Below, piece after piece: positions 54,159 to 57,346 of a stretch of DNA of 64,000 nt. This DNA is from Alphaproteobacteria bacterium. Its GTDB lineage: Bacteria; Pseudomonadota; Alphaproteobacteria; Reyranellales; Reyranellaceae. Below the pieces are notes generated by a model that was given only the letters and a program-made list of their open reading frames with translations, was not told the origin of the DNA and did no database searches. Made by a program: the position numbers and the translations under genes. The stretch is from assembly GCA_017308235.1 (NCBI GenBank), contig JAFKFL010000020.1, positions 62,001-126,000 of the forward strand, in the 5' to 3' direction. Position 1 is the stretch's first letter. Each line of letters opens with the position of its first letter.

Positions 54159-54467
54159 TCACGGCATGCGTGCTCGAAACCTCGCGATCGCCCGATCCTG
54201 CCGGACGAGCTTGGTCGACAAGGCGTCGATCTCCGATTGCCGCTCGGCGGTGAGCACTGCGAGGTGCGCGCGGTAACGGCCCAGGGATAGATATCGGCCG
54301 GATGATCGACCGCGCCGATCGGCCGTCCGACGGTACCGCGACCGCAGGAACAGCGCCGTCACGCAGCGCCTGATTTGGCGATGGATGACGTCGAGCTGAC
54401 GTTGTGTCTGCCGACGTGCCTCCTCCATGCGATGAAGCAGCACCACGCGGTCTCCGCTGGAATTCAC
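54159..54467 (-). CDS. Hypothetical protein, basic and helical
   Basis: 102 residues, rich in Arg (EEARRQTQRQLDVIHRQIRRCVTALFLRSRYRRTADRRGRS). GTG 54467 overlaps the upstream stop as GTGA and has GGAAGG five bases before it, so it was translationally coupled to the DUF7007-like gene. That gene is now split by an insertion element, which may reduce expression of this one. Function unknown; nucleic-acid binding is possible from its charge. Confidence 0.6.
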   Translation of the reverse strand: MNSSGDRVVLLHRMEEARRQTQRQLDVIHRQIRRCVTALFLRSRYRRTADRRGRSSGRYLSLGRYRAHLAVLTAERQSEIDALSTKLVRQDRAIARFRARMP

Positions 54468-54916
54468 TGCGCCCTTCCCGGCTGCCACCCGCGAAAGTCG
54501 GACGGTCCGCCATAGACCTCGTGCCGCTCGGGATCGATGACGAAGCCGAAGCGGCCGACCTCATAATCGCGGGCAGGTACCAGGAAGCGCCGCTCCTCCG
54601 TGCCGCCTCCGCGTTGGCCGCCGATGGTCGCGACGCACTCGACGAAGGCATGCCGGTGGCTGGACGTGATTGCGGCGACGACGATCCAGTCCTCTGCGTG
54701 CTGGGCCTCGAAGGCCCGGCGGTCCTTCGCGACGGATTCGCCGGGTCCGAGCACGGTTCCGAAGATCGCCTCCCAGGCATCCGGCCAGGAATCCTTGATG
54801 GTGCGCTCGGCACAGCGTCGCTCGAACCTGGTGAAGAGCTCCGGGAAGGCGATGGCGACGATCGCCCAGCATTCATCCTCTTTATATGATGATTGGTCAA
54901 GACATAGGCTCTCCAT
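54464..54916 (-). pseudogene. C-terminal part of a DUF7007-like gene split by an IS110-family element
   Basis: The frame reads DECWAIVAIAFPELFTRFERRCAERTIKDSWPDAWEAIFGTV...RRFLVPARDYEVGRFGFVIDPERHEVYGG. It continues the protein that stops at GGWYE in the fragment at 56391-56873: joining the two at the shared GAG restores GGWYE-DECWAIVAIAFPELF. The ATG at 54916 and its GGAG ribosome site lie inside the insertion element, so a 150-residue fusion could still be translated. Confidence 0.75.
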
Positions 54917-54969
54917 TGCTGTTCTCCATTAGCTTCCTGCTTCCAATATCCAGGTGAACCCAGGTATTT

Positions 54970-55110
54970 CCTCAGCCGGTAACAGCCGGGACAACCTTAT
55001 ATTCGGTCGCTGCATGAGCAGCGGTTCCACATTCCCGCATTCGATGGGCTGGGTTCAGGAAGGCGAGACCATCCTCATACGCGGCGGTTTAGGCCAAAGA
55101 AGACTTCCGG
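54970..55110 (-). ncRNA. Candidate bridge/seek guide RNA of the IS element (ends approximate)
   Basis: Within the 292-bp noncoding end, CATCCTCATAC at 55070-55080 equals the reconstructed empty target across the insertion point. GGGAC-AACC-TTATAT at 54988-55002 matches both sides of the element's circular junction (GGGAC-TCT-TTATAT). Read as minus-strand RNA, the target-like segment comes first and the donor-like segment second, the order described for IS110-family guide RNAs. The RNA itself is inferred. Confidence 0.55.
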
Positions 55111-55172
55111 TTCGCCTGCCTGGATCTGCCGAAGCTGATCAGGCTTTGGCAGATTGCGGAAAGGGTGAGGCC

Positions 55173-56339
55173 CTATGCATTCTTCAGCCTCGCACCTTCG
55201 ATCACGATGCCGGAAGTCACGTACTTCCACAGAGCGACGAGCAGTTTGCGTGCGAGGGCCACGACAACTTTCTTGCGCTGAGCTACGCCGCTCGATGCTG
55301 CTCGCTGTCGGAACCATCCGGTCAGCGCGGAATCCGGTTGATGGCGCACCCAGAGCCAGGCGACCTGTATCATCGTGGTCCGTAGCCTCGGATTCCCGGC
55401 TTTCGATACGCCCTGATCGCGATCGACAGAACCGCTCTGCCACGGCGTCGGTGCCAATCCAGCATAGGCGGCGATCTGCCTACGATTGTCGAAGTGCCGG
55501 TAAAAGCCCTCCACCCAAAGCATCGACGCGAACTCGGGGCCGATGCCACGCACATTCTCAAGCATGGCAATGGCGCTACTTGCCTCTTTCCGTTCGGACG
55601 CAAGAAGTTCATCGCGCTCTGCCTCGATCGCTCTGATCTGCTCGATGACCAATTCGAGGCGATCAAGTTCGCGCGAAATCTGGGCCTTCAAGAACGGTGG
55701 TAGGGCATGACCATCGCCCGTGCGCAGGTCTTCAAGGCGCAGCCGCCGATCTCGGTTGAGGGGCCGATAGTCGGAAATGCCTTGGGCGAACAATAGTCCT
55801 TCTATTCGATTGGCATGCGCCAATCGCTCGACGACGAGGGCCTTCCGTTCCCGAAGAAGCCTGCGCCGGTCTTCCTCGGCATGAGAGGGAACCCGAACCA
55901 TTGCGCAGGCGCGGGGTTCGCCACGTTTGAACGCCATCAGCGCTCGGATGAGTATTTCGCCGTCAATCCGATCCGTCTTCGCTCGACGCGCCTTCCTCGG
56001 AACCGCGATCGATGTCGCATCTACGACATGGCTTTCGAGACCTTCGTCAGCCAAGACCCGATGCACCCAGAAGCCGTCGAGACCGGCCTCCTGGATCAAT
56101 ACGATGGGGAGCAGATCGCCGGTTCGGCTTTTTGCCTTCAAACGGAGCTCGGCAAGCAAGCTAAGCAACCGTCCGATCTCGCCGGCCGGGAGACCTTTAC
56201 GCGCCATCTTGGTATCGACGCACGGAATAAATGAGGTCACAAGCCAGTTTGATTGGCTCAACTCGACCGAGACGTAAATGAGCTTGGCCAGATCCTCGGG
56301 AAACTCCGTCTTGTCTGAAACTATCGGCTTCATGTTCAT
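55173..56339 (-). CDS. IS110-family transposase
   Basis: 388 residues. The N-terminal RuvC-like domain shows YVSVELSQSNWLV (first acidic position Glu), LIQEAGLDGFWVHRVL and AKTDRIDGEILIRAL (D-x-x-D). The C-terminal domain has RGIGPEFASMLWVEGFYRHFDNRRQIAAYAGLAPTPWQSG and GVSKAGNPRLR with the conserved serine. The gene is complete, so the element may still be active. IS110 enzymes recombine circular donors into targets chosen by an element-encoded RNA. Confidence 0.92.
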   Translation of the reverse strand: MNMKPIVSDKTEFPEDLAKLIYVSVELSQSNWLVTSFIPCVDTKMARKGLPAGEIGRLLSLLAELRLKAKSRTGDLLPIVLIQEAGLDGFWVHRVLADEGLESHVVDATSIAVPRKARRAKTDRIDGEILIRALMAFKRGEPRACAMVRVPSHAEEDRRRLLRERKALVVERLAHANRIEGLLFAQGISDYRPLNRDRRLRLEDLRTGDGHALPPFLKAQISRELDRLELVIEQIRAIEAERDELLASERKEASSAIAMLENVRGIGPEFASMLWVEGFYRHFDNRRQIAAYAGLAPTPWQSGSVDRDQGVSKAGNPRLRTTMIQVAWLWVRHQPDSALTGWFRQRAASSGVAQRKKVVVALARKLLVALWKYVTSGIVIEGARLKNA

Positions 56340-56390
56340 TCGCTCTTCCGGATGATGTCCGCCTGAGCCTTTCCGCGGCAGGCGCTGCGG

Positions 56391-56873
56391 TCAATCATGG
56401 GACTCATACCAGCCGCCCTCGGAGCGCAGCATCGGATGGACCTGTGCATTGCGCGAGGCCGAGAGGTGGAAGCCGCTATGGCCGGCCGTGCTGTGGCAGA
56501 TGACGCCCTCGGCATAGAGCGTCGCGCCCTGCGACGATCCCCATGGCGTGCTGGCGCAAGACTGAAGATTCTTGCGGTGGAGCGCCCGCTTCTCACGCTG
56601 ATGTTCGGCGTGCTCACGCACGCCGGCGCGAAACGCCGCCTCGTCGGCAAGCTCGCCGGATTGGCCAAAAAATCGGTCGCGTGTCCATTCGTGCATCGGC
56701 AGGCGAAGCCGTGAGCCGGAGGCGAGGACATGCCGACCCTCGCGCGCCGGCACCATGGCGAATGCGGTATCGCCGACCAGCGCGACGAGAAGCCCGTCCG
56801 CGCTGCGACCGTACGCGATCTCAGGATGGCTAGAGGCGTCGGGGTCGCGGATATCGGGAGCGGAACCACTCAT
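56391..56873 (-). pseudogene. N-terminal part of a DUF7007-like gene interrupted by the IS element
   Basis: Reads MSGSAPDIRDPDASSHPEIAYGRSADGLLVALVGDTAFAMVPAREGRHVLASG ... GGWYE and then enters the insertion sequence, stopping after three foreign codons. ATG 56873 overlaps the stop of the upstream gene (ATGA) and has GGGAGG upstream. The C-terminal half lies at 54464-54880. Plasmid proteins of this type have no established function. Confidence 0.75.
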
Positions 56874-57346
56874 GCCGCGGTCCTCCCCTCGACGATATCG
56901 GCCCCAACCTCGTCGGCGGAGACCTCTTCGAGGACAGCGCGCGGATAACCGTTTCGGCTCAACCACTCCTCAGCCTCAGGCCGATGCGCGGCGAGATGGA
57001 CGAGCTTCGCGCCCTCGCCCGGGCGGTCGAAGATCCGAACCATGACGACGGCCGGCCGCTCCAGGACGGTGAAGTACAGCTTGGATTCCAGCGAGAAGGT
57101 CCGATGCACCCTGATGGCGATGACGCCGTCGGCGCCGAAATCCGCCTCGTGCAAGGTGAAACATGCCGGCAGGCTCACCGTGCCCACACCACGCTCGCCC
57201 TGTTTCTGGATGAGCCGGCCTTTGCTGTTCCTTGTCTGCCAGGTCGAGAGCTTCCGGGAAATCCGCTTCGGTGGTTGCGGCGTGCCATCCGACCACGCAA
57301 TCAGCGAGCCGATCGGGACGTTATCGTAGATCATGTGCGCGGACAT
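56870..57346 (-). CDS. Hypothetical protein of plasmid/ICE backbone type
   Basis: 158 residues (YDNVPIGSLIAWSDGTPQPPKRISRKLSTWQTRNSKGRLIQK ... EEWLSRNGYPRAVLEEVSADEVGADIVEG), with a beta-rich middle and no motif I recognise. ATG 57346 has GGAGG five bases upstream; the adjacent ATG 57349 is too close. It is coupled to the split DUF7007-like gene by an ATGA overlap, so the two were expressed together. Confidence 0.72.
   Translation of the reverse strand: MSAHMIYDNVPIGSLIAWSDGTPQPPKRISRKLSTWQTRNSKGRLIQKQGERGVGTVSLPACFTLHEADFGADGVIAIRVHRTFSLESKLYFTVLERPAVVMVRIFDRPGEGAKLVHLAAHRPEAEEWLSRNGYPRAVLEEVSADEVGADIVEGRTAA

What the first reader, a model, noticed from the sequence alone, without database searches (positions are those of the whole stretch)
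54881..56402. IS110-family element whose noncoding end matches both its target and its donor junction: candidate guide RNA
Seen: the element splits a gene, so the empty site can be rebuilt exactly (CATCCTC joined to ATACC). The 292-bp noncoding end holds CATCCTCATAC (55070-55080), an 11-of-11 match across that insertion point. It also holds GGGAC-AACC-TTATAT (54988-55002), which matches both flanks of the circularised ends (GGGAC-TCT-TTATAT). Known: IS110-family transposases use an element-encoded bridge/seek RNA with target and donor guides. Inference: this end encodes that RNA and the present insertion was RNA-directed. A natural insertion showing both matches makes a clean test case.
Basis: partly seen in the sequence, partly recalled or inferred. 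Interest (0 to 1): 0.85.

Follow-up and report, generated by a model that had tools for sequence, protein, structure and literature searches.

The report
RNA-guided jumping gene, guides decoded
This is a small jumping gene of the IS110/IS1111 kind that appears to carry a guide RNA telling it where to insert; in its relatives the guide and the chosen DNA site change together, and the enzyme has an unusual glutamate where the first catalytic aspartate normally sits.

Summary
The GGGAC half of the donor match does not covary. Comparison of 88 copies (81 parsed) gives the layout, minus strand: RTG 55097-55107, hairpin, LTG 55074-55081, then RDG 55033-55038, hairpin, LDG 54996-55002. Guides fit their own flanks, not others' (LTG 4.45 of 6 vs 1.47; RTG 6.1 of 7 vs 2.7; 0 of 20,000 permutations each). 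RDG and LDG track the element's own ends. A covariance model built without close relatives finds this RNA at E 1.5e-19. 83 of 83 scorable transposases have E, not D, at the first catalytic position. Known mechanism, apparently new catalytic variant. This copy's right core reads AA. Transcription and activity are untested.

The parts
55173..56339 (-). IS110-family transposase/recombinase, 388 aa; catalytic positions E26, E84, D123, D126 and SG at 302-303 (GLAPTPWQSG)
   Evidence: residues from alignments; fold match to IS621/ISCro4
56403..56404 (-). core dinucleotide AG at the left end
   Evidence: 2-nt overlap in the empty/occupied pair L103/L088; AG|ATCCC or AG|TCCC in the family
54881..54882 (-). 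core position at the right end; reads AA here, AG in the 10 close relatives
   Evidence: LDG/RE table
56340..56402 (-). left end (LE), short; begins TCCCATGATTG
56392..56398 (-). subterminal inverted repeat, left copy (ATGATTG)
54889..54895 (+). subterminal inverted repeat, right copy (ATGATTG on the plus strand)
55041..55156 (-). 5' and target-binding part of the bridge/seek RNA
   Evidence: covariance model R1, built from 39 distant relatives: 92.9 bits, E 1.5e-19; single match at E 0.001 or better in the whole genome
55132..55146 (-). 5' helix AAGC-CTGATCA-GCTT of the RNA
   Evidence: helix 1 (6 of 6 pairs with changes on both sides)
55109..55116 (-). target-binding loop stem, 5' arm (GGCGAACC)
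   Evidence: helix 2 (96.6% of cells paired)
55062..55070 (-). target-binding loop stem, 3' arm (GGTCTCGCC)
   Evidence: helix 2
55097..55107 (-). right target guide segment (RTG; [quoted passage not shown]
55082..55096 (-). apical hairpin between RTG and LTG (TGGCCTAAACCGCCG)
   Evidence: helix 3
55074..55081 (-). left target guide plus core (LTG; CGTATG-AG), same sense as the left target
55051..55059 (-). donor-binding multiloop closing stem, 5' arm
   Evidence: helix 4
54955..54962 (-). donor-binding multiloop closing stem, 3' arm
   Evidence: helix 4
55033..55038 (-). right donor guide (RDG; GCGGGA), complementary to LE TCCC
   Evidence: tracks LE: GGGAT with ATCCC/ATCCT, GGAAT with ATTCC, GGGA with TCCC, 4 exceptions
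54996..55002 (-). left donor guide (LDG; ATATAAG), same sense as the right end CATATA-AG
   Evidence: LDG identical to RE in 48 of 50 copies over three RE forms
56403..56966 (-). 5' part of the interrupted DUF7007 gene
   Evidence: PF22653 positions 2-55; ORF
54464..54880 (-). 3' part of the interrupted DUF7007 gene
   Evidence: PF22653 positions 53-116; ORF

Best explanation
An IS110-superfamily element with IS1111-like anatomy. Its recombinase is inferred to bind an RNA with the minus-strand sequence, encoded downstream of its gene. Shown by comparison: one loop of that RNA holds two target guides (RTG, complementary to the top strand right of the AG core; LTG, complementary to the bottom strand left of it), and a second multiloop holds two donor guides that match the element's own ends in the same way; all four track the DNA they match. 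Inferred: the element excises as a circle joined over AG, the RNA pairs the circle junction with the chromosomal target, and the RuvC plus serine active site exchanges strands at the core. In this window that put it into a DUF7007 gene at TGGTATG-AG-GAGGATG.
For: Own versus mismatched guide-flank pairing: LTG 4.45 of 6 vs 1.47 (40 distinct guides), RTG 4.89 of 7 vs 1.77 (28), 0 of 20,000 permutations; RTG allowing a slip of 1: 6.1 vs 2.70, 24 of 30 with 6 or more against 1.7% of mismatched pairs; after merging similar guides, LTG 16 clusters 4.56 vs 1.36 and RTG 13 clusters 5.0 vs 1.74, 0 of 100,000. From the guide of the B. erythrophlei GAS478 copies I expected the right flank CAATCCAT before reading it (in my working; no call records this); 6 of 7 copies show CATGTGAG|CAATCCA and then diverge, the seventh (L031) lacks that end. 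RNA fold: 93.9% of cells paired, 22 of 32 pairs with double changes against 11.0 in shuffles, 23-49% paired in slid controls. Model R1 finds this copy, E 1.5e-19. Elements L087, L088, L090, 99.9-100% identical, have 400-bp flanks only 70-86% identical, and L007, 98.9% identical, is in an unrelated gene, all at CTGGTACG-AG-GARG. GU pairs 66 vs AC 21 in the helices favours an RNA with the minus-strand sequence.
Against: No transcript, RNP or movement was observed. In this very copy RTG is only 4 of 7 identical (6 of 7 with wobbles) and the right core is AA. RDG has four partial exceptions (GGGAA with LE ATCCC: L020, L052, L053, L056) of 76 copies with an LE, and three more not parsed. Guide mismatches do not tell the RNA strand (18 sense-type vs 13 antisense-type wobbles), and the plus strand folds as well as the minus strand. 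Related copies are not independent.
Confidence: 0.93

Rival explanations
1. Protein-only site-specific recombination: the transposase reads a conserved target, and the RNA is structural or regulatory.
For: The close relatives all sit at the same target with unchanged guides, which alone would fit protein recognition.
Against: Transposases about 60-67% identical to this one with the same catalytic residues use many different targets, and each target follows that copy's own two variable RNA segments.
Confidence: 0.03
2. The NCR matches are captured flanking DNA (imprecise excision), not guides.
For: An element could pick up flank sequence, and own-flank matches alone do not exclude it.
Against: The two segments lie at fixed places on either side of a conserved hairpin inside a covarying fold, match opposite strands, and two other segments match the element's own ends.
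Confidence: 0.02
3. The present insertion is a chance or protein-driven event and the element is now inert; the RNA anatomy is only ancestral.
For: Single copy in its genome, right core AA instead of AG, RTG pairing needs two wobbles.
Against: LTG plus core match 7 contiguous nt, the site is the same codons used by near-identical elements in diverged homologs, and the transposase frame is open.
Confidence: 0.15

Closest known systems
IS1111-type elements with seekRNA (ISEc11, ISPa11, ISKpn4; PMC11187229)
   Same: NCR downstream of the transposase gene; subterminal inverted repeats; segment pairing with the top strand lies 5' of the one pairing with the bottom strand; GL-P----SG motif; insertion without extra bases.
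   Different: Transposase 388 aa against 330-350 aa reported; first catalytic residue E; donor guides read here by covariation.
IS621 and ISCro4 (IS110 group, bridge RNA; PMC11208160, PMC11208158, PDB 8wt6, 9t56)
   Same: For IS621: four guides with the core included in the pairings, LTG and LDG to the bottom strand, RTG and RDG to the top. For both: recombinase fold (Z 14.8-15.2, 292-295 residues aligned).
   Different: IS621-type RNA lies in the left end, upstream of the gene; IS621 core is CT, here AG; D11 against E26. The order of guides within the IS621 loop was not checked; in ISEc21, another IS110-group element, it is the reverse of the IS1111 order (PMC11187229).
ISRel9 (name given in record annotation to relatives at 60-61% identity)
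   Same: A named insertion sequence among the hits; same subfamily by identity.
   Different: No paper found for that name; its guides were not examined individually.
TIGR-Tas
   Same: Related fold (TasR 9mty Z 12.0) and an NCBIfam hit below cut-off (26.4 vs 100 bits).
   Different: Guides come from a tandem array beside the Tas gene (abstract start seen in a listing); function otherwise recalled.

Membership tests
IS110 superfamily | Transposase matches the curated IS110 family model | tested here: met
   NF033542 205.3 bits vs cut-off 140; PF02371 62.5 vs 21.3; PF01548 28.9 vs 29, just below, first 48 profile positions unaligned
IS110 superfamily | D-E-D-D catalytic tetrad in the RuvC domain | tested here: not met
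   First position is E in 83 of 83 scorable subfamily members (84 aligned of 88, 4 with stops dropped, 1 gap there) and in L095; D in 27 of 27 other IS110/IS1111 transposases scored of 30 loci. E84 and D126 in 84 of 84, D123 in 83 of 84
IS110 superfamily | Conserved serine (SG) in the C-terminal domain | tested here: met
   S302 and G303 invariant in 49 aligned sequences
IS1111 group | Long noncoding end downstream of the gene, short one upstream | tested here: met
   292 vs 63 bp
IS1111 group | Subterminal inverted repeats, 7-17 bp | tested here: met
   7 bp here, offset 4 and 6 from the core where most copies have 4 and 2; longest exact match 7 or more in 21 of 36 distinct LE/RE pairs, mean 7.0 vs 4.3 for shuffled ends, of which 2.6% reach 7
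IS1111 group | Transposase length 330-350 aa | tested here: not met
   388 aa here; from the match start to the stop, mostly 366-390 aa in the intact relatives
Bridge/seek RNA systems | Conserved structured RNA in the noncoding end | tested here: met
Bridge/seek RNA systems | Target guides covary with the insertion site | tested here: met
Bridge/seek RNA systems | Donor guides covary with the element's ends | tested here: met
   LDG 48 of 50; RDG classes, with 4 exceptions and 3 unparsed of 76
Bridge/seek RNA systems | RNA is made, binds the transposase and is required for movement | not testable with these tools
   needs small-RNA sequencing and transposition assays
Rfam families | Match to a curated RNA family | tested here: not met
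   0 matches up to E 1 over 54700-56600, 0 at gathering scores over the window

The most novel reading that the evidence does not exclude
A large, recently active subfamily of bridge-RNA recombinases in which the first metal-binding aspartate of the RuvC site is replaced throughout by glutamate (E-E-D-D), paired with its own RNA class downstream of the gene whose target guides have been rewritten many times in nature. It would be a set of ready-made, naturally reprogrammed recombinases with altered active-site geometry.
Probability: 0.6. Interest if true: 0.65.

Novelty: new variant of a known kind. Interest (0 to 1): 0.5.

Why it matters
Published work showed guide RNAs by experiment for five IS110/IS1111 elements (PMC11187229) and IS621, with a covariation survey over thousands of IS621-type RNAs in left ends and six further elements inspected by hand (PMC11208160, passages). 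Here one subfamily of the downstream-RNA type supplies many natural target changes, an exact empty/occupied pair, and donor guides that can be read from covariation, so its target and donor rules can be tested directly. The conserved D-to-E change is notable because D11 in IS621 helps hold the magnesium ion and mutating it abolished recombination (PMC11208158, passages). The Pfam model for this domain scores this protein just under its cut-off, so surveys that rely on it could undercount the subfamily.

Tried and rejected
My own first idea that the arm CCTTCC after the LTG was the right target guide: dropped when the family alignment showed it conserved and the variable segment 5' of the hairpin matching the right flank. 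First guess of a GA core (note): replaced by AG.

Single-sequence folding did not tell the strand: both strands fold better than shuffles (z -3.05 minus, -3.18 plus). A promoter made at the circle junction: TTGA[CT] lies in the right end of 36 of 39 distinct copies, 17 nt from the LE [CT]ATG in 12 but 22-23 nt in 24, so not settled. DNA search of 193 relatives' genomes gave, besides this copy, only short partial matches in 5; protein search of 76 genomes of the order at E 1e-100 gave one other, a 48% relative. Model R1 had no match up to E 1 in L095 or in the 27 other IS110 loci given; that does not show they lack an RNA.

Samples and dropped rows: the genome-contig scan kept the best 80 of 313 relatives; of 463 plasmid records with a match I fetched 7 transposase loci, and of 379 with the split gene 9. 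Of 88 copies (window, L007-L086, L087-L093) 7 failed the target-loop pattern (L010, L011, L014, L018, L054, L065, L069), leaving 81; LTG tests drew on 73, right-end tests on 50, RTG tests on those without N or contig end (30 distinct guides). L016, L029 and L063 fit their right flank poorly even with slip (3-4 of 7), as does this copy by identity (4 of 7). A1 holds 52 of 75 sequences (nonredundant); model R1 used 39 of the 48 listed; A2 used 49 of the 50 listed. In one search, 4 of 88 proteins with internal stops were left out, 3 of 30 loci gave no scorable frame.

Papers: PMC11187229, abstract, outline and the Results section in full; PMC11208160, abstract, outline, one section and passages; PMC11208158, passages; others, listings only. 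Searches in which I saw no report of the E substitution or of this subfamily's guides. They were word searches of an open-access library without preprints, and supplements were not read, so ISfinder members of this subfamily may have been analysed there.

Full report
What is there. The window carries one 1,522-bp element at 54881-56402, read on the minus strand. It has a 63-bp left end, a 388-aa transposase (55173-56339) and a 292-bp noncoding end. The protein is an IS110-family recombinase. Its predicted structure (49-sequence alignment, mean pLDDT 81.3, pTM 0.53) matches IS621 and ISCro4 best (Z 14.8-15.2 over 292-295 residues, rmsd about 6). The element splits a DUF7007 gene; both halves hit PF22653. 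It is the only match to the element in its genome, and the only IS110-family hit there.

Insertion point. Homologs of the split gene that carry no element read W/F-Y-E-E/Q-D at the site in 8 of 8 cases read, including a paralog in the same genome. A plasmid pair gives the event directly: L103 (no element) and L088 (element) agree at 100% over 1,274 bp and 99.75% over 811 bp, and the two matches overlap by exactly two bases, AG. So the core is AG, and this copy's empty site is TGGTATG-AG-GAGGATGAATGC, which is what excising 54881-56402 gives. The longest match of the noncoding end to the corrected site is 9 nt, GTATGAGGA.

Relatives. I compared 88 copies: this one, 80 from a genome-contig scan (the best 80 of 313) and 7 from plasmids. 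The noncoding end is conserved as an RNA. Its order is: a 5' helix around CTGATCA; a stem (GGACGAACC with GGTCTCGTCC); inside it a variable segment, the hairpin TGGC..GCC, and a second variable segment ending in AG; then a multiloop closed by CTGAGCCC with GGGCTCAG that holds GCGGGAT, a hairpin and ATGTGAG or ATATAAG. RNAalifold on 52 sequences found 28 pairs, 17 with double changes. For the 32-pair structure I named, 93.9% of cells pair, 22 pairs have double changes against 11.0 in shuffles (0 of 500 as high), and slid controls pair 23-49% of cells. The structure was chosen on this alignment, so the percentage favours it. A covariance model from 39 distant relatives, without this copy or its close kin, finds 55041-55156 minus at 92.9 bits, E 1.5e-19; the next match in the window has E 0.093. 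In the whole genome it is the only match at E 0.001 or better.

Target guides. The first variable segment (RTG) is complementary to AG plus the right flank; the second (LTG) repeats the left flank plus AG. Examples: L012 RTG ACATCAGGCT, flank complement ACATCAGGCT; L044 LTG TAAGCCAG, left flank CAAGCCAG; L055 RTG CATGGCAGGC, flank complement CATGGCAGGC one base out of register. Scores against own and other copies' flanks: LTG 4.45 of 6 vs 1.47 over 40 distinct guides, RTG 4.89 of 7 vs 1.77 over 28, 0 of 20,000 permutations each. Allowing a one-base slip, RTG scores 6.1 vs 2.70 over 30 guides. After merging similar guides to reduce shared ancestry, LTG scores 4.56 vs 1.36 in 16 clusters and RTG 5.0 vs 1.74 in 13. 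For B. erythrophlei GAS478 the right end was missed by my first pattern; from its RTG I expected the flank CAATCCAT, and 6 of 7 copies read CATGTGAG|CAATCCA before diverging. The expectation was formed in my working and is not recorded in a call. Poor fits exist: L016, L029 and L063, and this copy by identity alone.

Donor guides. LDG equals the right end in 48 of 50 copies: ATGTGAG (29), ATATAAG (18) and ATATGAG (1). The two exceptions, this copy and L016, have AA for AG in the end itself. RDG follows the left end: GGGAT with ATCCC or ATCCT (48), GGAAT with ATTCC (11), GGGAA with TCCC (10, of which GGGA is the complement). Four copies (L020, L052, L053, L056) have GGGAA with ATCCC, one base off, and three were not parsed, of 76. 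These counts include related copies.

Natural retests of one guide. L087, L088 and L090 are 99.9-100% identical as elements, while their 400-bp flanks are only 70-86% identical. Most simply, the same element entered diverged copies of the gene separately, at the same codons; transfer of the element between them by other recombination is not excluded. L007, 98.9% identical, lies in an unrelated gene (flanks about 43-45% left and 38-43% right) that I take for an enolase-superfamily gene from its translation (recalled resemblance, not searched). All share CTGGTACG-AG-GARG. Their LTG core GTATG is the same as here; the window's own target has T for C at one position, which matches the guide exactly, where the others need a U-G pair.

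Ends. Subterminal inverted repeats are present: 7 bp here, at offsets 4 and 6 from the core where most copies have 4 and 2. In the family the repeat differs between copies but agrees between the two ends (mean longest exact match 7.0 vs 4.3 for shuffled ends, 36 distinct pairs). Downstream RNA, these repeats, the order of the target segments and the GL-P----SG motif are what PMC11187229 gives for the IS1111 type. Length (388 aa) is not.

Catalytic residue. In 83 of 83 subfamily sequences with a residue there, and in a 48% relative (L095), the first catalytic position is E (as in VSLELS); in 27 of 27 other IS110/IS1111 transposases scored from related genomes it is D. The start of the structural alignment (model 19 to chain 4) puts E26 at residue 11 of IS621 and ISCro4 if no gap intervenes, and E26 lies in the first strand of the model (residues 21-28). 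In IS621, D11 and E60 hold the magnesium ion, and mutating D11, E60, D102, D105 or S241 abolished recombination (PMC11208158, passages). Near-identical copies at different sites indicate that enzymes with E have moved recently. That glutamate takes the catalytic role is inferred.

How likely and what is left. I hold RNA-directed insertion by a bridge/seek-type RNA at 0.93. Shown by comparison: fold, tracking of all four guides, exact core. Inferred: transcription, binding, circle intermediate, strand exchange. Whether this copy still moves is open, since its right core is AA and its RTG pairs with two wobbles. The mechanism is known, and natural redirection has been reported for other elements (ISEc11/ISXne4 and ISEc21/ISMch6, PMC11187229; IS621-type survey, PMC11208160). 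What I did not find in the papers searched (a limited library) is this subfamily's guides or the conserved D-to-E change.

Noticed in passing
54881-54882: The right-hand core of this copy reads AA while its left core and the close relatives read AG; L016 shows the same. It may block excision or record a core mismatch at insertion.
   Followed up: partly
55173-56339 (E26): Conserved glutamate in place of the first catalytic aspartate across the subfamily; the Pfam domain model PF01548 scores the protein 28.9 bits against a cut-off of 29.
   Followed up: yes
54895-54900 and 56394-56399: TTGACC in the right end and CATGAT in the left end would be 17 nt apart in a circle, a possible junction promoter; the spacing is 22-23 in 24 of 36 distinct copies with TTGA[CT].
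   Followed up: partly
L064 and L067, right end: After the apparent right end the sequence repeats the element's own donor-loop sequence, as if joined at the left donor guide; may be an assembly artefact.
   Followed up: no
L024, right end: A second right-end-like CATGTGAGCAAT follows the first within a few bases, which looks like a trace of tandem insertion and loss.
   Followed up: no
L106: In B. barranii 323S2 the DUF7007 site carries the same left junction, and an IS3-like ISRj2 transposase is annotated about 1 kb downstream.
   Followed up: no
L097 (G000:C21): The same genome holds a paralog of the split DUF7007 gene on another contig, uninterrupted at this site.
   Followed up: partly
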